DNA of 64,000 nucleotides, from assembly GCF_018603885.1 (NCBI RefSeq), contig NZ_JAHGAW010000004.1, positions 124,001 through 188,000 on the forward strand, in the 5' to 3' direction. Positions 28,094 to 35,522 of the stretch are shown piece after piece (position 1 is the stretch's first letter; each line of letters opens with the position of its first letter). Under the pieces are notes generated by a model that was not told the origin of the DNA, did no database searches, and worked only from the letters and a program-made list of their open reading frames with translations. The translations under genes were made by a program, and so were the position numbers. This DNA comes from Sphingobium nicotianae. Lineage in GTDB: Bacteria > Pseudomonadota > Alphaproteobacteria > Sphingomonadales > Sphingomonadaceae.

Positions 28094-29557
28094 ATGAGAC
28101 GCTTCGGACGCACGGCCGCCCTTACCCTCCAGAGCCTTGCGCTGATGCTCTCCGGATGCGGGGATGGCGGCGGTTCGGGCGGTTCTTCGCCGACACCCAC
28201 GCCGACGTCGACGCCCACGCCCACGCCCTCCGCCAATGCCAGCTGCACCCTGCGTGCGCGGCAGGACTGGGCGCTGGCGCAGATGCAGGAATGGTATCTC
28301 TTCCCCGAGACGCTGCCGGGCAATCTCAATCCCGCCGCCTATGCCTCGCTGGAGGATTATGTCGATGCGCTGACCGCCACGGCGCGCGCGCAGGGGCGGG
28401 ATCGCTACTTCACCTTCGTCACCTCGATCGCGGGCGAGACCAATTACTATAACAACGGCACGACCGCCGGTTTCGGCATCCGCGTCAAGACCGATGCCGG
28501 CGCGCGCCGCGCCTGGGTGTCCGAGGCGTTCGAGGGCGCGCCGGGTCTTGCCGCCGGGCTCGATCGCGGCGTCGAGATCCTCGCCATCGGCACCGGTGCG
28601 AACACTCTCCAGAGCGTCGCGACGCTCATGGCCAATTCCGGCGAGGCCGGTGTCATCAATGCGCTCGGACCGGACACCGCCGGCGTCACCCGGACCTTGC
28701 GCATTCGCGACACCGGCGGCGATCATGTCATCACCGTTTCCAAGGCCGATTACGATCTGACGCCCGTCTCCTCGCGTTACGGCGCCAGGGTGATCGACGA
28801 CAATGGCAACAAGGTCGGCTACATCAATCTGCGCACCTTCATCAGCTCGGCCGATCCGGCGCTGCGCGCCGCCTTCGCCAGTTTCAAGGCGCAAGGCATC
28901 GATCAGGTGATCATCGACCTGCGCTACAACGGCGGCGGCCTCCTCTCGATCGCGCAGACGCTCGGCAATCTGCTCGGCGGCAACCGACAGGCGTCGGACG
29001 TGTTCGCGCAGCTCACGCTCCGCCCGGAGAAATCCTCCGAGAACGAGACGCTCAATTTCGCGCCGCAGCCGGACTCGATCAGCCCGCGCAAGATCGCCTT
29101 CATCGGCTTCGAGGGCACGGCCTCGGCCAGCGAACTCGTGATCAACGCCATGGTGCCCTATCTGCACACCAATGTCGTGCTGGTCGGCGGCAATACCTAT
29201 GGCAAGCCGGTCGGCCAGATCGCGATCGACCGCAGCGCCTGCGACGACCGCTTCCGCATCATCGCCTTCGCGACCAAGAATGCGGCGGGTAACGGCAATT
29301 ACTTCAACGGCCTCGCGACGACGATGGAAGCGACCTGCCGGGCAAGCGACGACGTCACGCGCCAGTTCGGCGACGCGCAGGAGGGCTCGACCCGCGTCGC
29401 GCTCGACTATCTCGCCGGGCGCGGCTGCTCGCCGATCTCGGCGAGCGGGGTCGTCGCGCAATCGGTGACCACGAGCGCGGGCAGCACGAGCGGCGCCCGC
29501 CTGCTCGTCCCCGATCATCCGACCACGCCGCAGCGCGAAGTGCCCGGCATTTTCTAG
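28094..29557 (+). CDS. S41 family (C-terminal processing-like) peptidase, lipoprotein
   Basis: A 487-residue protein. The signal ends in a lipobox (LALMLSGCG), followed by a Ser/Thr/Pro linker with PTPTPTSTPTPTPS. The PDZ-like region (FGIRVKTDAGARRAWV onward) precedes the S41 protease domain with IDLRYNGGG, the serine block GFEGTASASELVIN and the Lys in NTYGKPVGQ. This is a Ser-Lys dyad tail-specific-protease relative anchored in the periplasm. ATG 28094 is 86 bp past the repeat element. It has a Cys-rich end (CDDRF, CRASDD, GCSPI). Confidence 0.88.
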   Translation: MRRFGRTAALTLQSLALMLSGCGDGGGSGGSSPTPTPTSTPTPTPSANASCTLRARQDWALAQMQEWYLFPETLPGNLNPAAYASLEDYVDALTATARAQGRDRYFTFVTSIAGETNYYNNGTTAGFGIRVKTDAGARRAWVSEAFEGAPGLAAGLDRGVEILAIGTGANTLQSVATLMANSGEAGVINALGPDTAGVTRTLRIRDTGGDHVITVSKADYDLTPVSSRYGARVIDDNGNKVGYINLRTFISSADPALRAAFASFKAQGIDQVIIDLRYNGGGLLSIAQTLGNLLGGNRQASDVFAQLTLRPEKSSENETLNFAPQPDSISPRKIAFIGFEGTASASELVINAMVPYLHTNVVLVGGNTYGKPVGQIAIDRSACDDRFRIIAFATKNAAGNGNYFNGLATTMEATCRASDDVTRQFGDAQEGSTRVALDYLAGRGCSPISASGVVAQSVTTSAGSTSGARLLVPDHPTTPQREVPGIF

Positions 29558-29891
29558 GCCGGGTGACGGGCATCGATGCAGCGCATGGACCCTCTCTCGC
29601 CTGCGGGAGAGGGAGGAGCCCGCCGCGAAGCGGTGGGAGGGTGAGGGTCTTCTGGACCTCGCCCCAGAGAAAGACCCTCATCCAACTGCGCCTAATTCGC
29701 TTCGCTCATAAGGCTGCGTATCCTTCTCCCGCTTGCGGGAGAAGGTTGGCGCGACCGCAACCAGTCGTCACCGCTACACCGCTCGTCGCAGGGCGGCGAA
29801 TTTGATTAACGCTCTTTGAACCCCCGGCGGCGGCCTCGCCACTAACCCCGTGACGTCATCGTGGGATCGACGTTTCATGGGAGAGCTACAC
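29558..29891. other. Intergenic region with repeat and PEPxxWA promoter
   Basis: 334 bp. The first half is a palindromic repeat (29589-29752). The second half leads to the PEPxxWA gene and contains the 8-bp palindrome TGACGTCA (about 29850) 40 bases before the ATG, a possible operator. No gene seen. Confidence 0.5.
29589..29752. repeat. CCCTCTCCCGC-type repeat pair
   Basis: CCCTCTCTCGCCTGCGGGAG plus AGGG is followed, after a second small stem, by GTGAGGGTCTTCT. An inverted partner begins GAAAGACCCTCATCC and ends with CCTTCTCCCGCTTGCGGGAG plus AAGG. It uses the same GAGGGTCTTTC tail as the 47-bp arms of the 14146 element, so it is a cargo-less relative. Confidence 0.7.
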
Positions 29892-30521
29892 ATGCACAAA
29901 CTGCTATCGGCCGCGGCGCTCGCCGGCCTCATGCTTGCCGCGAGTCCGGCCCTTGCCGGGATCGTCACCGACGAGACCGGCTTCCTGCCCACTTACACCG
30001 GCCCGCAGCAGGCCGATCTCGACGTCACCAGGTTCAGCGTCGCGTGGGACAGCGTCAGCCAGATGTTCCAGCTCTCCTCGACGATGGCCGGCACGATCGA
30101 TCTGGGCGCGCCGGGCTTCTACATCATCGGCGTCAACACCGGCTCGGCGGGGCCGAGCCCGTTCGCGGGCATCGGCCAGCCCAACGTGATCTTCAACACG
30201 GTGATCCGGATCAACAAGGTCGGCGCGAGCACAGTCAACGGCCATAACCTGACGCCGAGCTTCGCGGGCGATACGTTCGACGTGTGGGTGCCGCTGAGCT
30301 TCCTGCCCGCCGCGGCCAACGGCTTCACGCCGATTGACTATGGCTTCAACATCTGGCCGCGCAGCGGCGCGGGCGGCACCGAAGTGATCAGCGACTTCGC
30401 GCCGAACAATGCCAATCTGACCGCCGTGCCCGAGCCGGCGAGCTGGGCGCTGATGATCGGCGGCCTGGCGCTGGCCGGCGGCATGATGCGCCGTCGCGTG
30501 GCGCGCGTCGCCTTCGCCTGA
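29892..30521 (+). CDS. PEPxxWA-CTERM sorted exported protein
   Basis: A 209-residue protein. The signal peptide LLSAAALAGLMLAASPALA is followed by a secreted beta-sandwich-like domain (YTGPQQADLDVTRFSVAWD; NTVIRINKVGASTVNGHNL). The C-terminal sorting tail is VPEPASWALMIGGLALAGGM with MRRRVAR. SD GGGAGAGCTACAC precedes ATG 29892. It lies directly upstream of the sigma / anti-sigma / subtilase operon, separated by a strong hairpin, but any functional tie is unproven. Function unknown. Confidence 0.85.
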   Translation: MHKLLSAAALAGLMLAASPALAGIVTDETGFLPTYTGPQQADLDVTRFSVAWDSVSQMFQLSSTMAGTIDLGAPGFYIIGVNTGSAGPSPFAGIGQPNVIFNTVIRINKVGASTVNGHNLTPSFAGDTFDVWVPLSFLPAAANGFTPIDYGFNIWPRSGAGGTEVISDFAPNNANLTAVPEPASWALMIGGLALAGGMMRRRVARVAFA

Positions 30522-30598: not shown

Positions 30599-30701
30599 CG
30601 CATCCCGCTCCGCCGCATTTTCTGCACCGCGCTTGAACCAGGCGTCGGCAAGGGCGCACTAATGCGCGCAGGCGGACTCACGGGGAGGCGGAACGGACAG
30701 C

Positions 30702-31286
30702 GTGTCGGGCGATCGGCGTCGACAGATCGAAGCGGAGCGGCGGAGCGGCGAGGCGGACCTGCTCGCGCGCGTGCGGCTGCGCGATCTCGCCGCGTTCGAG
30801 GGGCTGTACCGGCTCTATCATCCGCGCCTCAGCCGCTTCGTGACCAGCCTCGTGCGCCGTCATCCGCTGGTCGAGGAAGTCGTCAACGACACGATGATGG
30901 TGCTGTGGGACAAGCCGGAGAGCTATGGCGGCCAAGCCAAGCTCTCGACCTGGCTCTATGCCATCGCCTATCGCAAGGCGATCCGCGCGCGGCTGCGCCA
31001 GGACGAGCCGGTCGAGGACGGGCACCGGCCCGAGCTGGGCGACGATGATGCACCGCCCGATCGCGACTTCGGCCGCAGGCGCGCCGCCGCGATCCTGCAA
31101 AGCGCGATCGAGGAACTTTCGCCCGATCACCGCGCCGTCGTCCATCTCACCTATTTTCAGGAGATCGGGTATCGGGAGATCGCCGATATTTTGGGCTGCC
31201 CGGTCGACACGGTGAAGACACGCATGTTTCATGCCCGCCGCCATCTGAAGCGCAAGCTCAGCGGCGAGCTGGCCGACTGGATCTAG
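30702..31286 (+). CDS. ECF-type RNA polymerase sigma factor
   Basis: A 194-residue protein. Region 2 comprises FEGLYRLYHPRLSRFVTSLV, VEEVVNDTMMVLWDKPESY and LSTWLYAIAYRKAI; region 4 comprises ELSPDHRAVVHLTYFQEIGY, REIADILGCPVDTVKTRMFH and ARRHLKRKL. The start is GTG 30702; the nearest GGAGG is 13 bases away, so translation may be weak. The anti-sigma gene starts 10 bases after its stop. It is first gene of a four-gene operon with an anti-sigma factor, a subtilase and a porin, so it probably controls an envelope response. Confidence 0.9.
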   Translation: MSGDRRRQIEAERRSGEADLLARVRLRDLAAFEGLYRLYHPRLSRFVTSLVRRHPLVEEVVNDTMMVLWDKPESYGGQAKLSTWLYAIAYRKAIRARLRQDEPVEDGHRPELGDDDAPPDRDFGRRRAAAILQSAIEELSPDHRAVVHLTYFQEIGYREIADILGCPVDTVKTRMFHARRHLKRKLSGELADWI

Positions 31287-31295
31287 GAAGCAACG

Positions 31296-31916
31296 ATGGG
31301 CAATGTCATTCCACTCCACGGCGACCCGCACGAGACCACGCAGCGGCTGATGCCCTGGTTCCTCACCGACATGCTCGATCCGGCCGAGCATGCGCTGGTC
31401 GAGGGCCATCTCGCGAGCTGCGCCGAGTGCGCGGCCGAGCTGATAAGCGAGGAGCGGCTGCGCATCGACCTGCTGGCACTGCCGGGCGCGCCGGCGGGCG
31501 ACTGGGCGGCGCTGCGCGACCGCGCTCTGGCGAGCCAGCCCCGGCCGGGCTGGTGGGCCTCGCGCGGCCTTGCCTCGCGCGTCGGCCTGATCGCGGCGGG
31601 GCAGGCGGCGATCCTGCTGCTCGGCATCGGTGTCTATGACCGGCTGCGCCCGGCGCCGCAGGCGGAGTATCATGCGCTGAGCGCGCCGCAGCCGGCGGCG
31701 CACACCGGCAACATCATCCTGATCTTCCGCCCCGACAGTCGCGAGCGGGCGATGCGCGCCGCGCTCGATGCGGTCGGCGCGCGGCTGGTCGACGGGCCGA
31801 CCGCGGCCGGCGCCTATGTGCTGGCTGTGCCGCAGGCGCGGCGCGATGCGGCGCTCGACCTGCTGCGCAAGCGGCCCGACATCGTGCTGGCCCAGCCGAT
31901 CGACGCCGCGCCGTGA
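31296..31916 (+). CDS. Zinc-finger anti-sigma factor with subtilase-prodomain-like periplasmic domain
   Basis: A 206-residue protein. The N-terminal zf-HC2 domain has H38, C42 and C45 in EGHLASCAECAAEL. A single membrane span lies at about 96-114. The periplasmic part (115-206) contains a unit from NIILIFRPDSRERAM to DIVLAQPI (about 138-202). Its strand-helix-strand-strand-helix-strand pattern, with a YVLAVP strand and final AQPI, resembles the I9/propeptide domain of subtilases. The same pattern appears in the prodomain of the S8 protease encoded next (FIMTVP and SWSEPV). SD GGAAGCAACG precedes ATG 31296. The prodomain resemblance is my inference from reading, not a search. Confidence 0.8.
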   Translation: MGNVIPLHGDPHETTQRLMPWFLTDMLDPAEHALVEGHLASCAECAAELISEERLRIDLLALPGAPAGDWAALRDRALASQPRPGWWASRGLASRVGLIAAGQAAILLLGIGVYDRLRPAPQAEYHALSAPQPAAHTGNIILIFRPDSRERAMRAALDAVGARLVDGPTAAGAYVLAVPQARRDAALDLLRKRPDIVLAQPIDAAP

Positions 31917-33124
31917 CGATCCGGGCGCTCCTTGCCGCGCTCTGCCTGCTGCTCGCGCCTTTGGCGGCGGCGCGCGCGCAGGCGCCGGCGGCGGTGGAGC
32001 GGCAGATCATGGTCATGCTGCGCCTCGCACCGCCGCATCTGCGCGCCGGGGCCGATTATGGCGGCGGCTATGGCGACGATGCCGCGCGGGGCGCGCGCGC
32101 CCGCATCGCCGCCCGTCTGGCGCGCGCCCACGGGCTGGCGCTCGTCACCAACTGGGCGATGCCGATCCTCGGCGTCGATTGCTTCATCATGACCGTGCCC
32201 GGCGGTCGCTCGGTGGATGCCGCCGCCGCCGAGATCGCGCGCGATCCACAGGTGAGCTGGTCCGAGCCGGTCGGCCTTTATTCCGCGCAGGCCCAGGCCG
32301 GCAAAGCGGGGGCGGGCCATGACGACGCCCTGTTCGCGGCCCAGCCGGCCGCCGCGATATGGCATCTGGCGGCGCTCCACGCCTGGCGCACCGGCAAGGG
32401 CGTGTCGGTCGCGGTGATCGACAGCGGCGTGGATGCGCGCCATCCCGATCTTGCCGGCCAGATCGCCTTGTCGCGCAATTTCGTGGACGGCGCCGCTGTG
32501 CCGGAAAATCACGGCACGGCGATCGCCGGCATCATCGCGGCGCGCGCCGACAACAAGGTCGGCATCGCCGGCATCGCGCCGGGCGCGCGCATCCTGGCGC
32601 TGCGGGCCTGCTGGCAGCGCGCGGCGCAGACGCTGTGCGACAGCCTCAGCCTCGCCAAGGCGATCCAGTTCGCGATCGAGCAGCGCGTGCCGATCCTCAA
32701 TCTCAGCCTGGCCGGGCCGCCGGGCCGCCTGCTCACCAGCCTGCTGCGCATCGGCCTCGATCGCGGGCTGACCGTCGTGGCCGCCTATGATCCGGCGCTG
32801 GCCGATGGCGGCTTCCCGGCCTCGATGCCCGGCGTGGTCGCGGTCAGCGATAATGCTGACAGGCTCGCCAATCGCTCTGTATACAGCGCGCCGGGGCGCG
32901 ATGTCCCGGCACCGGCTCCGGGGGGGCGATGGTCACTGGTCGATGGCAGCTCCTTCTCGGCGGCGCATGTGAGCGGCCTGTTCGCGCTGCTGCGCGAGAA
33001 GCCGGGGATGCCGCTCAGGCTGGCCGCGAGCCGCAGCGCGGGCGGCGACATCGATATCTGCGCGACATTCGCGCCGTCCGGCGCGCCTGCCGGCTGTGGT
33101 GGTCTGGCCGGGCCTGCCCGGTGA
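31913..33124 (+). CDS. Subtilisin-like serine protease (S8), exported
   Basis: A 403-residue protein. The signal peptide ends ARAQ (about 23), the I9-like prodomain spans about 28-120, and the catalytic domain follows from about 148. The triad is Asp170 in VAVIDSGVDARHPDL, His200 in ENHGTAIAGI and Ser347 in DGSSFSAAHVSG. Where most subtilases have the oxyanion Asn (AAGN), this one reads VVAAYDPALADGGFPAS, suggesting Asp instead. The C-terminus is Cys-containing (DICATF, AGCGG). GTG 31913 overlaps the anti-sigma stop as GTGA, and its own stop overlaps the next gene the same way. The likely target is the anti-sigma factor or the porin. Confidence 0.9.
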   Translation: MTIRALLAALCLLLAPLAAARAQAPAAVERQIMVMLRLAPPHLRAGADYGGGYGDDAARGARARIAARLARAHGLALVTNWAMPILGVDCFIMTVPGGRSVDAAAAEIARDPQVSWSEPVGLYSAQAQAGKAGAGHDDALFAAQPAAAIWHLAALHAWRTGKGVSVAVIDSGVDARHPDLAGQIALSRNFVDGAAVPENHGTAIAGIIAARADNKVGIAGIAPGARILALRACWQRAAQTLCDSLSLAKAIQFAIEQRVPILNLSLAGPPGRLLTSLLRIGLDRGLTVVAAYDPALADGGFPASMPGVVAVSDNADRLANRSVYSAPGRDVPAPAPGGRWSLVDGSSFSAAHVSGLFALLREKPGMPLRLAASRSAGGDIDICATFAPSGAPAGCGGLAGPAR

Positions 33125-33831
33125 GGCCTGCCAGCGCCGGCCGCCGGGCCGGTCTGTTCGTCGCGCTCGCGCTTGCCGCGCCCGCGCCGGCGCAGCTCAG
33201 CTTCGGCGCCAGTGTCGCGAGCGACTCCCGGTTGCGCGGCCATTCGCGCAGCCAGGGCCGTCCCGCCGCCAGCGCCAGCATTGGCTATGATGATGCCTCC
33301 GGCCTGTTTGCGAGCGGTAGCGGCACCGTGTTCCTCGCGCCCGGCAACGAAGGCGTGCGCTGGATGGGCGGCGTCGTCGCGCTCGGCTATGCCCAGCGTC
33401 TGCGTGATGGGCTGTCAGTCGAGCTTGGCGCTCTGCGCGCGCAATATTCGCGGGCCAGCTATGGCCGCCCCGCCGGTTACAGCGAGCTGTTCGCAGGCCT
33501 CTCCGGGCGTGTCCTGTCAGCCCGCATCGCTTTCTCGCCGGACTATCTGCGCCCCGGCGTCGCCATGCTCTATGGCCAGGTCGAGGCTGTCACCCGGCCG
33601 GCGACCGACTGGCGCCTGTTCGGTCATGTCGGCGCGCTCACCCGGCTCGGCGGCATGCCGGCCTTCCCGATCTCCGCCACCCAATATGACTGGCGCGCCG
33701 GCATCGGCCGCGTCGCGGGCAAGTTCGATCTTGAACTGAGCCTGTCGAGCGGCGGACCCGATCGCGATTATTACGGCCAGCAGATGCACACGAAGACCGC
33801 GCTGGTCGGGGCGGTGAGCGTCGCCTTCTAG
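33121..33831 (+). CDS. TorF family putative porin (Gcw_chp/TIGR02001-like)
   Basis: A 236-residue protein. The signal peptide (GLFVALALAAPAPAQ) is followed by QLSFGASVASDSRLRGHS, matching the start of TorF/Gcw_chp barrels (a short strand then a conserved SDxRxRG-type turn). Alternating beta strands run to the end, and the C-terminus VGAVSVAF ends in Phe as outer-membrane proteins do. Start GTG 33121 overlaps the protease stop (GTGA). It is the last gene of the sigma operon, so the regulated output is probably in the outer membrane. Confidence 0.75.
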   Translation: MRPASAGRRAGLFVALALAAPAPAQLSFGASVASDSRLRGHSRSQGRPAASASIGYDDASGLFASGSGTVFLAPGNEGVRWMGGVVALGYAQRLRDGLSVELGALRAQYSRASYGRPAGYSELFAGLSGRVLSARIAFSPDYLRPGVAMLYGQVEAVTRPATDWRLFGHVGALTRLGGMPAFPISATQYDWRAGIGRVAGKFDLELSLSSGGPDRDYYGQQMHTKTALVGAVSVAF

Positions 33832-33907: not shown

Positions 33908-33995
33908 CGTCATTCCCGCGCACGCGGGAATCCAGTTCCACGCTGCCGCTGAGCCGCAAGGTCACAGCTGGATTCCCGCGTACGCGGGAATGACG
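33908..33995. repeat. Inverted pair of CGTCATTCCCGCG palindromic repeats
   Basis: CGTCATTCCCGCGCACGCGG plus GAATCCAG (from 33908) and its inverted partner CTGGATTCCCGCGTACGCGG plus GAATGACG (to 33995) are separated by about 30 bp. This is a widespread REP-like family, different from the G-rich repeats. A single copy is at 16194. Confidence 0.75.
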
Positions 33996-34397
33996 AGGAG
34001 CGGTGGCGCAAAGGGTCCGCCGCCCACCCAGTTTCGGCCGTCCACTTCGCTCGCGCGCTGTCCCCATAGCGGCCCACCATCCCTACCGCCAATTTGGCCA
34101 TGCGCCCTGGGCGGGGGCTGGCTGGCGACTCGCCCTTGCGGTCCGGTTGCCCGATCGGGTGAAACATTCATCGCTCATATGTCCCGATCCGGGGCGGTCC
34201 GTGCGACTCGCGGGATGATGCAGGGCGGGAAGGATTTCTGCGTTCTTCCCACGGCCGTTCATATTTGGTAAATATGTCCTTAACGGCACGTCTCTCCTTC
34301 TTGGGAGGCGATGCCGCAGGGGCGCAGATCAAATAAAAAAAGATCTGTCGATCGGGATGGTCCCGGTTGATTCAGTAGTCATGTGGGAGCGACTGCA
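33996..34397. other. Intergenic region upstream of a PEPxxWA metalloprotease
   Basis: 402 bp without a convincing gene. The right part (34200-34397) is less GC-rich and contains TTTGGTAAATATGTCC and AAATAAAAAAAGATC, a plausible promoter and leader for the gene at 34398. A GGCACGTCTC near 34285 recalls half of a sigma-54 site, but the -12 part does not match. Confidence 0.45.
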
Positions 34398-35522
34398 ATG
34401 CGACACCTGAAAGCACTCGCGGCTGGCGCCGCGATGGTGGGCTTTGCGTTCACGGCAAGCACGCCGGCGAACGCCGTCAATTTCAACTTCACCTTCACGG
34501 CCGGCACCAGCGCGCAGGCGCAGGCGGCCTTCCTCCAGGCGGGCCAACTCTGGGCCGACATCTTCACCGACAATATCACCGTCGATCTGACCGTGGGCAC
34601 CGCCGCGCTCGGCCCGGGCATCCTTGGCCAGGCCGGCTCGCGCAGCTTCACCATCGACTATTCGACCTTCAAGCTGGCCATGGGCCTCGACGCGACCAGC
34701 GCCGCGGATGCGACCGCCAATGCTCACCTGCCGGGCGGATCGTCCTTCCCGCTGCTGATCAACCGCACGTCGAACAATCCCAACGGCGCCGGCTCGGCCA
34801 CGCCCTATGTCGACAATGATGGCGACGCCAACAACTCGACCATCTATTTCTCGGCGGCCAATGCCAAGGCGCTGGGCTTCACGACGCCGAACGGCACGAT
34901 CAGCGGCTGCACGGTGACGTGCGATGCGTTCATCCAGTTCAGCACCTTGTTCAACTTCGACTATGACCGCAGCAACGGCATCGACGCCAACGCCTATGAC
35001 TTCATCGGCGTCGCGGCGCACGAGATCGGCCATGCGCTGGGCTTCACCAGCGGCGTCGACGTGCTCGACAATAACAGCCCGCCGATCAACGGCCCGTTCA
35101 GCGACAATCAGTTCACCTTCGTGAAGCCGCTCGACCTGTTCCGCTACTCGGCACAGAGCGAGGCGCTTGGCGTGATCGACTGGACTGCCGACAATCGCGA
35201 CAAATATTTCTCGATCGATGGCGGCGCGACGGTCGGCCCGCTCTTCTCGACCGGCACCAATTTCGGTGACGGCCGTCAGGCGAGCCACTGGAAGGACAGC
35301 CTCAACATCGGCATCATGGACCCGACGGCCGGTCTGGGTGAGTTTCTGAGCATCACCGGCAACGACAAGCTGGCGCTGGACGTGGTCGGCTGGGATCTCA
35401 AGCAAGCCTCGCCGCCGACGCCGGGCGTGCCCGAGCCGGCGACCTGGGCGATGATGATCGGCGGCTTCGCGCTCGCCGGTGTCGCGATGCGCCGCCGCAA
35501 GGTTGCCGTCAGCTTCGTCTGA
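34398..35522 (+). CDS. Zinc metalloprotease-like protein with PEPxxWA-CTERM tail
   Basis: A 374-residue protein. The signal peptide (KALAAGAAMVGFAFTASTPANA) is followed by a large extracellular domain containing AAHEIGHALGF: H208, E209 and H212 form the zincin HExxH motif, with GF beyond as in metzincin-like NF038122 proteins. The C-terminal tail is VPEPATWAMMIGGFALAGVA with MRRRKVA. ATG 34398 follows GTGGGAGCGACTGCA. It is the only one of the three sorted proteins here with a recognisable enzyme domain. It could process surface proteins or matrix. A hairpin terminator follows. Confidence 0.85.
   Translation: MRHLKALAAGAAMVGFAFTASTPANAVNFNFTFTAGTSAQAQAAFLQAGQLWADIFTDNITVDLTVGTAALGPGILGQAGSRSFTIDYSTFKLAMGLDATSAADATANAHLPGGSSFPLLINRTSNNPNGAGSATPYVDNDGDANNSTIYFSAANAKALGFTTPNGTISGCTVTCDAFIQFSTLFNFDYDRSNGIDANAYDFIGVAAHEIGHALGFTSGVDVLDNNSPPINGPFSDNQFTFVKPLDLFRYSAQSEALGVIDWTADNRDKYFSIDGGATVGPLFSTGTNFGDGRQASHWKDSLNIGIMDPTAGLGEFLSITGNDKLALDVVGWDLKQASPPTPGVPEPATWAMMIGGFALAGVAMRRRKVAVSFV

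What the first reader, a model, noticed from the sequence alone, without database searches (positions are those of the whole stretch)
30702..33831. Sigma / anti-sigma / subtilase / porin operon where the anti-sigma ectodomain mimics the protease prodomain
Seen: four genes with a 10-base gap and then two GTGA overlaps. The anti-sigma factor has a zf-HC2 domain, one membrane span and a periplasmic unit (about residues 138-202). That unit has the strand-helix-strand-strand-helix-strand order of subtilase I9 prodomains, including YVLAVP followed by a helix and IVLAQPI. The next gene's own prodomain (about 28-120) shows the matching FIMTVP, helix, VSWSEPV. Known: prodomains bind their cognate protease's active site; anti-sigma factors are released by site-1 proteolysis. 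Inference: the anti-sigma ectodomain is a docked pseudo-prodomain, so protease occupancy or cleavage would set sigma activity and porin output. I know of no described circuit with this layout.
Basis: partly seen in the sequence, partly recalled or inferred. Interest (0 to 1): 0.85.

Follow-up and report, generated by a model that had tools for sequence, protein, structure and literature searches.

The report
Anti-sigma factor carrying protease-prodomain-like sensor
A bacterial gene switch is wired to a secreted protease through a membrane protein whose outer part looks like that protease's own folding and inhibitor segment, and the same pairing recurs in many bacteria, which suggests a built-in way for cells to sense the state of a secreted enzyme.

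Summary
The operon is real: ECF sigma 30702-31286, anti-sigma 31296-31916, exported S8 subtilase 31913-33124, TorF-like porin 33121-33831. The anti-sigma ectodomain (about 139-202) is predicted as beta-alpha-beta-beta-alpha-beta. Its only Pfam match is the fervidolysin prodomain family PF22148 (borderline score). It aligns in register with the prodomains of the linked subtilases (hhalign score 32; 100 column-permuted controls reach at most 14.8).

Ectodomain and subtilase genes are linked in 96 of 102 loci across Pseudomonadota, although the home genome holds only four S8 places. Of six exceptions, one has its S8 elsewhere in the genome and four have a C14 caspase gene nearby instead. In two genomes sigma and the anti-sigma's cytoplasmic part are so different that replacement is likely, while ectodomain, subtilase and porin are kept. 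The sigma operon and an adjacent PEP-CTERM gene share an ECF-type promoter-like site with no third match in the genome.

So the pseudo-prodomain anatomy is supported. Docking, cleavage and the sign of regulation are untested; fine-scale coevolution and the caspase loci do not favour it. Best reading: an anti-sigma that reads its own exported protease, working like RsiV with lysozyme but with an unrelated domain.

The parts
29816..29844 (+). ECF-type promoter-like site TTGAACC-N17-CACTA before the PEP-CTERM gene
   Evidence: Exact match; one of only two matches (up to 1 mismatch) in the 4.43 Mb genome
29850..30521 (+). Exported PEP-CTERM protein; predicted target of the sigma factor
   Evidence: Pfam PEP-CTERM 6.3e-6; homologues near the operon in 11 distinct other loci
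30633..30661 (+). ECF-type promoter-like site before the sigma gene (predicted autoregulation)
   Evidence: the spaced pair TGAAC-N18-CACT is upstream of sigma in 22 of 46 close loci, ten shuffles at most 5
30702..31286 (+). ECF sigma factor, 194 aa, GTG start
   Evidence: Sigma70 r2 and r4; TIGR02937 sigma70-ECF 3.5e-26
31296..31916 (+). Anti-sigma factor, 206 aa: zf-HC2 domain, one predicted membrane helix (about 92-117), periplasmic ectodomain
   Evidence: zf-HC2 1.7e-7; AF2 helix 92-117; membrane insertion read from sequence
31710..31901 (+). Prodomain-like ectodomain (residues 139-202) of the anti-sigma factor
   Evidence: PF22148; AF2 fold; subtilisin propeptides head the VIA list at Z 8.1-8.5, tied with unrelated chains at 8.1; hhalign to the S8 prodomains
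31913..33124 (+). S8 subtilase with signal peptide (read from sequence), own prodomain (about 30-119) and catalytic domain; D170, H200, S347 and N263
   Evidence: PF00082 7.9e-26; these residues invariant in the 11 aligned sequences
33121..33831 (+). TorF/Gcw_chp family outer-membrane porin-like protein
   Evidence: PF09694 3.8e-9, TIGR02001 1.2e-10, below its cutoff

Best explanation
This is an autoregulated ECF sigma circuit whose anti-sigma factor reads the exported protease of its own operon. The anti-sigma ectodomain is a subtilase-prodomain-like domain used as a docking receptor: it should sit on the surface of the mature S8 enzyme where the enzyme's own prodomain sat while it folded. 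Docking then changes anti-sigma stability. I favour the docked protease making, or enabling, the first cut in the loose juxtamembrane linker (about residues 118-138), so that sigma is freed and switches on two promoters: its own operon (sigma, anti-sigma, protease, porin) and the adjacent PEP-CTERM gene. Shown: the fold prediction and profile similarity, the genetic linkage, the mismatch between sigma-side and protease-side histories in two loci, the two promoter-like sites, and the intact catalytic residues. Inferred: docking, the cut, its place, sigma's action at the two sites, and the sign of regulation. The opposite sign, in which bound protease shields the anti-sigma as negative feedback, stays open.
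For: (1) Prodomain likeness: the main Pfam family of the ectodomain set (PF22148 in 8 of 12 at E 1 or better, best 8.1e-6; 15 of 27, best 1.7e-6, every other family in one member only and none below 0.02); AF2 fold; subtilisin propeptides 1spb_P, 1scj_B, 3cnq_P and 3whi_B at Z 8.5-8.1 and the propeptide-like inhibitor POIA1 at 8.0; register-true hhalign to the S8 prodomains, 0 of 100 permutations as good. (2) Linkage: S8 beside the ectodomain in 96 of 102 loci, against 4 S8 places in the 4.43 Mb home genome. Reciprocally, every close S8 relative found lies in a genome with the ectodomain: 11 of 11 and 9 of 9 (two genomes are in both sets). In Caulobacter sp. S45 the S8 is unlinked but present. 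(3) Linkage survives rearrangement: 7 of 95 linked loci have the anti-sigma on the strand opposite to sigma and S8. (4) L023 and L024: sigma 18 and 17% and anti-sigma cytoplasmic part 12 and 15% identical to the window, yet S8 49 and 53% and ectodomain 42 and 39%. (5) Over 67 loci, ectodomain-S8 tree distances correlate at r 0.87 (0.80 with sigma held constant), against 0.20 for cytoplasmic part-S8 with the ectodomain held constant. (6) RsiV sets a precedent for an anti-sigma that binds an enzyme's active-site pocket, binding being required for its site-1 cleavage (PMC5014341, abstract read).
Against: No complex was modelled. Ferredoxin-like folds are common: unrelated chains reach Z 8.1 in the same list; Foldseek gave nothing at E 0.001 or better and ranks ribosomal protein S6 (5e-3) above the first propeptide (0.02). 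With small alignments the hhalign probability is only 6.5 (E 0.0056). Four loci have a C14 caspase gene instead of an S8. L093 has no S8 nearby. Inside the close set the coevolution result goes against a special ectodomain-S8 tie: with the two odd loci removed (46 loci) ectodomain-S8 is 0.635 while cytoplasmic part-S8 is 0.82 and sigma-S8 0.814; the partial ectodomain-S8 values are 0.234 and 0.083, and cytoplasmic part-S8 with the ectodomain held constant is 0.675. With them kept (48 loci) the last value is 0.463 and ectodomain-S8 with the cytoplasmic part held constant 0.365. The C-terminal tail of the domain is too short in most distant loci (0-4 residues past the P201 column in 38 of 47) to fill the active-site cleft as a true propeptide does. 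No cleavage site was identified.
Confidence: 0.55

Rival explanations
1. Occupancy sensor with negative feedback: the pseudo-prodomain binds free mature protease, which shields the anti-sigma. When the protease is drawn off by substrates, or is scarce, the bare ectodomain is cut by a general site-1 protease, and sigma replenishes protease and porin.
For: The same anatomy and linkage data; a promoter-like site suggests that sigma drives the protease gene itself, which suits homeostasis; the tail in the window and its close relatives (4-8 residues past P201 in 49 of 49) could partly enter the cleft as inhibitors do.
Against: No direct evidence; the short tails of distant members argue against active-site occupancy.
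Confidence: 0.22
2. The ectodomain is a membrane-anchored inhibitor or folding helper for the exported protease, a second prodomain supplied in trans, and carries little or no signal to sigma.
For: Prodomains are known as inhibitors and folding chaperones (established knowledge); POIA1, a stand-alone propeptide-like inhibitor, is among the best structural matches.
Against: The S8 proteins read here keep their own prodomains (close set by profile; distant ones by eye), so a second helper is not obviously needed, and fusion to an anti-sigma would be odd without signalling.
Confidence: 0.08
3. The ectodomain senses something else (an envelope ligand or another protein); the proteases are only outputs of the regulon, and the fold resemblance reflects a common ferredoxin-like scaffold or distant ancestry without docking.
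For: Four loci have a C14 caspase gene instead of the subtilase; ferredoxin-like folds are widespread; in the close set S8 follows the cytoplasmic part and sigma at least as well as the ectodomain.
Against: Linkage in 96 of 102 loci, presence of the S8 when unlinked, and ectodomain with S8 kept together in the two loci with another sigma side fit a physical partner better than a mere output. Porin and PEP-CTERM neighbours vary more than the S8.
Confidence: 0.15

Closest known systems
RsiV - sigma V - lysozyme (Bacillus subtilis)
   Same: An anti-sigma factor that acts as receptor for an enzyme; it binds the enzyme's active-site pocket, binding is required for site-1 cleavage, and it also inhibits the enzyme (PMC5014341, abstract read).
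   Different: There the enzyme is lysozyme, an outside signal; here the presumed partner is the operon's own protease and the domain is prodomain-like. No RsiV-type family was hit here. Binding is untested here.
Stand-alone subtilisin propeptide-like inhibitors (POIA1; MEROPS I9, recalled)
   Same: Same fold (1v5i_B Z 8.0) and presumed target class.
   Different: Here the domain is fused behind a membrane helix to an anti-sigma domain, and its tail is short in many members.
RseA/DegS and other regulated intramembrane proteolysis of anti-sigma factors (recalled)
   Same: Anti-sigma domain, one membrane helix, periplasmic domain; a periplasmic serine protease is implicated.
   Different: DegS is a PDZ protease activated by porin C-termini and is not bound through a prodomain mimic (recalled knowledge).
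ECF54 group with subtilase, carboxypeptidase and CHAT proteins in its context
   Same: ECF sigma genes with subtilase genes in their context (PMC8999054, two passages read).
   Different: [quoted passage not shown] here an anti-sigma factor is present.

Membership tests
Class I (ASDI / zf-HC2) anti-sigma factor | zf-HC2 / Hx3Cx2C zinc-finger anti-sigma domain | tested here: met
   PF13490 1.7e-7 at residues 15-46, above its cutoff; sequence reads HLASCAEC; L023 and L024 score below the cutoff
Class I (ASDI / zf-HC2) anti-sigma factor | Encoded next to its cognate ECF sigma gene | tested here: met
   9-base gap; a sigma gene was found in 93 of the 95 S8-linked loci besides the window, on the same strand in 86
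Subtilase prodomain (PF22148 Fervidolysin_NPro-like / I9 fold) | Sequence match to the family model above its cutoff | tested here: inconclusive
   18.7 bits for the whole protein (cutoff 21), 21.2 for the isolated domain; 15 of 27 diverse members match at E 1 or better; Inhibitor_I9 was not listed
Subtilase prodomain (PF22148 Fervidolysin_NPro-like / I9 fold) | Beta-alpha-beta-beta-alpha-beta fold | tested here: met
   AF2 model, block pLDDT 92-97 for 141-200; subtilisin propeptides head the VIA list, Z 8.1-8.5, rmsd 2.1-2.7, 60-64 aligned, tied with other ferredoxin-like chains
Subtilase prodomain (PF22148 Fervidolysin_NPro-like / I9 fold) | Lies N-terminal to a subtilase domain in the same chain | tested here: not met
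   The domain ends the anti-sigma chain; the S8 has its own separate prodomain
Subtilase prodomain (PF22148 Fervidolysin_NPro-like / I9 fold) | Binds and inhibits the cognate protease | not testable with these tools
   No complex was predicted here; needs a binding assay
RsiV-type lysozyme receptor anti-sigma | RsiV ectodomain family | tested here: not met
   Only zf-HC2 and PF22148 were hit at E 1 or better
Active S8 subtilase | Asp-His-Ser triad and oxyanion Asn | tested here: met
   D170, H200, S347 and N263 invariant in the 11 aligned sequences; activity itself not tested
ECF54 protease-controlled sigma factors | No anti-sigma factor | tested here: not met
   An anti-sigma gene is present

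The most novel reading that the evidence does not exclude
A widespread signalling class in Pseudomonadota in which the anti-sigma factor carries a captured protease prodomain, so that the sigma factor reports the amount, maturation state or occupancy of one dedicated exported protease. The protease partner can be exchanged (subtilase, in some lineages perhaps a caspase-like enzyme), and the sigma plus cytoplasmic half can be exchanged independently of the sensor plus protease half.
Probability: 0.45. Interest if true: 0.85.

Novelty: new variant of a known kind. Interest (0 to 1): 0.7.

Why it matters
The signals that release most ECF anti-sigma factors are unknown (general knowledge). Here the sensor domain itself names a candidate ligand: the protease encoded next door. 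If true, it is a compact circuit by which a cell measures its own secreted protease. A profile of the domain hits 38 of 398 sampled Pseudomonadota genomes at E 0.001 or better (at least one of these, L203, looks false). The loci in which sigma side and sensor-protease side have different histories give a natural experiment, and the binding test is simple.

Tried and rejected
Sequence search of PDB chains with the anti-sigma gave nothing at E 10 or better; the ectodomain profile gave six rows at E 0.23-1.1 (dehydrogenases, imine reductases, cysteine synthases), taken as chance. A weak match in the home genome (L002/L027, E 0.05, one stop inside) lies antisense to a long ORF (L027 6485-7933) and was dropped. 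L025 (G101) matched only at query residues 21-112 and has no S8 hit; I read it as an ordinary anti-sigma. Set aside before the count, by reading the sequence and without a family search: L084 (looks like a membrane protein, 44-residue match), L085, L102 and L203 (look like unrelated enzymes). Of the 41 places, five were already in hand and two (G1122, G1054) were not fetched. The count of 96 of 102 mixes samples and related genomes; it is not a probability. In L201 and L202 no sigma gene was detected, so calling their ectodomain proteins anti-sigma factors is uncertain. AF2 of the S8 was poor (mean pLDDT 56.9) and was used only for the element order of its prodomain. Fold listings cannot exclude other ferredoxin-like families.

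A porin-centred reading was rejected because no porin gene was seen by the S8 in L094 and L101 (gene listing by eye) nor hit at E below 1 in L021. A fusion of ectodomain and subtilase in one chain was not noticed among the loci read, but was not searched for systematically.

Papers: the listings showed no paper that appears to describe this layout (searches returned no paper at all). The library lacks most subscription journals and the main ECF reclassification paper (not held), so an earlier mention in its tables is possible.
Full report
WHAT IS THERE. The window carries four same-strand genes: an ECF sigma factor (30702-31286), an anti-sigma factor (31296-31916), an exported S8 subtilase (31913-33124) and a TorF/Gcw_chp porin-like protein (33121-33831). 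The first gap is 9 bases; the other two junctions are GTGA overlaps. The subtilase starts with a typical signal peptide (read from sequence). D170, H200, S347 and the oxyanion N263 are invariant in the 11 aligned sequences. The anti-sigma has a zf-HC2 domain (PF13490, 1.7e-7), a helix at 92-117 of membrane type and a C-terminal domain that should be periplasmic.

THE ECTODOMAIN IS PRODOMAIN-LIKE. The only other Pfam family hit by the window protein at E 1 or better is PF22148, the fervidolysin-type subtilase prodomain, at residues 137-201: E 0.0024 and 18.7 bits for the whole protein (cutoff 21), 21.2 bits for the domain alone. Among 12 relatives 8 match at E 1 or better, best 8.1e-6. Among 27 diverse members 15 match, best 1.7e-6; every other family is hit by one member only and none is below 0.02. 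It is the only PF22148 place found in the home genome at E 10 or better, below the family's cutoff. AF2 gives beta-alpha-beta-beta-alpha-beta at 140-201 with block pLDDT 92-97 for 141-200. In the structural comparison subtilisin propeptides come first (1spb_P 8.5, 1scj_B 8.4, 3cnq_P 8.2, 3whi_B 8.1; rmsd 2.1-2.7, 60-64 residues), with the inhibitor POIA1 at 8.0. Unrelated chains reach 8.1 in the same list, so these rows are tied and the fold alone is not decisive. Foldseek has no match at E 0.001 or better; ribosomal protein S6 (5e-3) ranks above the first propeptide (0.02). The subtilases' own prodomains, which Pfam barely recognises (2 of 11, best 0.0073), align with the ectodomains by hhalign: E 0.0056 but probability only 6.5 with 12 against 11 sequences; E 5.2e-5, probability 67, score 32.05, 70 columns with 96 against 96, where 100 column-permuted controls gave mean 7.4 and maximum 14.8.

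LINKAGE. In 198 relatives the anti-sigma query hits 13 genomes and the S8 query 11; all 11 S8 genomes are among the 13. Of the other two, G101 matched only at query residues 21-112 and has no S8 hit, and G157 has a rearranged system with a remote S8. In 396 genomes of the order, the nine close S8 relatives (E 7e-99 or better, then a gap to generic subtilases at 1.3e-25) are all in ectodomain-positive genomes; the 13 genomes with only a generic subtilase match are not ectodomain-positive; of the 16 ectodomain-positive genomes seven have no close S8 (five of them a remote S8 beside the domain, two are the false matches L084 and L085). Profiles of the ectodomain hit 16 of 396 genomes of the order, 17 of 385 of the class and 38 of 398 of the phylum. 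Named relatives include Sphingomonas, Sphingobium, Caulobacter, Pseudoduganella, Rhodanobacter, Dyella and Rudaea. After removing seven duplicates and four places that do not look like anti-sigma factors, an S8 gene lies beside the ectodomain in 96 of 102 loci, with at most 1.5 kb between the open frames. The home genome has only four S8 places at E 0.001 or better, so chance neighbourhood within 3 kb would be under 1 percent per locus there (own arithmetic). In 7 of the 95 linked loci besides the window the anti-sigma is on the strand opposite to sigma and S8, so simple operon inheritance is not the whole story.

EXCEPTIONS. L119 (Caulobacter sp. S45) has its S8 elsewhere in the genome, 53% identical, E 8e-113. 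L093 has none nearby; the other copy in that genome (L089) has an S8. L195, L200, L201 and L202 have a C14 caspase gene in the neighbourhood (PF00656, 1.8e-39 to 1.6e-8); it overlaps the ectodomain gene in L195 and L201 and lies 1.5 kb or more away in L202 and L200. A sigma gene was detected in L195 and L200 only. L195 also has a CHAT protein. So the domain may serve with another protease, or it senses something that both systems share.

A CHANGED SIGMA SIDE. In L023 and L024 the sigma factors (18 and 17% identical to the window) and the cytoplasmic anti-sigma parts (12 and 15%) are of another kind (best NCBIfam model PRK12511 instead of PRK12515; neither model's cutoff is reached). Their S8s (49 and 53%) and ectodomains (42 and 39%) lie within the range of the other 15 sphingomonad loci (S8 47-74%, ectodomain 32-72%, sigma 50-81%). 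The simplest reading is replacement of the sigma side with a joint inside the anti-sigma gene, so that the ectodomain stayed with the protease (inference). Tree distances over 67 loci agree (ectodomain-S8 r 0.873; 0.803 with sigma held constant, 0.756 with the cytoplasmic part held constant; cytoplasmic part-S8 with the ectodomain held constant 0.201). Inside the close set they do not: with the two odd loci removed (46 loci) ectodomain-S8 is 0.635, cytoplasmic part-S8 0.82 and sigma-S8 0.814; partial ectodomain-S8 values are 0.234 and 0.083, and cytoplasmic part-S8 with the ectodomain held constant 0.675. The domain is short and noisy, but fine-scale coevolution is not shown.

REGULON. The spaced pair TGAAC-N18-CACT is found upstream of sigma in 22 of 46 close loci; ten shuffles gave at most 5 for any pair. 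The window has two exact TTGAACC-N17-CACTA sites, 29816-29844 and 30633-30661. Allowing two mismatches, 17 of 100 shuffled windows had two or more matches. In the whole genome these are the only two matches with up to one mismatch; the reversed-pattern control gave 19, so the count is not what speaks but the exactness and placement. The first site fronts a PEP-CTERM gene (29850-30521) whose homologues sit near the operon in 11 other distinct loci, with a second site before them in several, for example L073, L104, L114, L117, L123, L130 and L136. In L018, L019, L020 and L022 the second site fronts a small exported protein that looks cupredoxin-like (my reading, no family search).

MECHANISM. 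Shown: similarity, linkage, the changed sigma side, the promoter-like pair, intact catalytic residues. Inferred: the ectodomain docks where the subtilase's own prodomain sat. In this fold the start of strand 1 lies next to the end of strand 4 (established topology, recalled), so the flexible linker (AF2 pLDDT below 50 at 124-133) would emerge near the active site of a docked protease. With the short tails of most distant members (0-4 residues past the P201 column in 38 of 47; 4-8 in 49 of 49 close ones) this fits docking without a plugged cleft, and hence a docked protease that can still cut. That is why I prefer the docked-cutter model over the pure inhibitor model; the sign remains open. RsiV, whose binding of lysozyme at the active-site pocket is required for its own site-1 cleavage, shows that this kind of coupling exists (PMC5014341, abstract read).

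NOVELTY. The listings of eight searches of an open-access library showed no paper that appears to describe this layout; the central ECF reclassification paper is not held. [quoted passage not shown] The survey of class I anti-sigma domains says that their extra domains are conserved within groups and likely sense cues, without naming this one in the part read (PMC7406223, passages and part 1 of 2 of section 6). I rate it a new variant of a known kind.

Noticed in passing
L195:4953-5756, L200:1879-3240, L201:6227-8242, L202:2653-4170: C14 caspase genes stand near genes with the same kind of ectodomain; L195 also has a CHAT-domain protein and a further caspase-looking ORF nearby.
   Followed up: partly
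window 29850-30521 and 34383-35522: Two PEP-CTERM genes flank the operon; the second also weakly matches matrixin-type metalloproteases (below cutoff).
   Followed up: partly
window 28094-29557: S41 peptidase gene just upstream of the PEP-CTERM gene; no promoter site of the sigma type stands before it in the window.
   Followed up: no
window about 33910-33996 and about 29590-29750: Palindromic intergenic repeats seen by eye (TCATTCCCGCG...CGCGGGAATGA and CTCTCGCCTGCGGGAGAG-like), perhaps dispersed repeats or terminators.
   Followed up: no
L084:280-1080: A protein that looks like an unrelated membrane protein contains a 44-residue stretch resembling the middle of the ectodomain; no S8 or sigma hit in the 8 kb fetched.
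   Followed up: no
L026, L079, L086: In some distant systems the linked S8 has a lipobox-like signal (by eye), so it may be membrane-tethered.
   Followed up: no
   Followed up: partly
G080, G045, G036 (same genus as the home genome): Their contigs equal in length named Sphingobium contigs, so the window probably comes from a Sphingobium-type genome.
   Followed up: no
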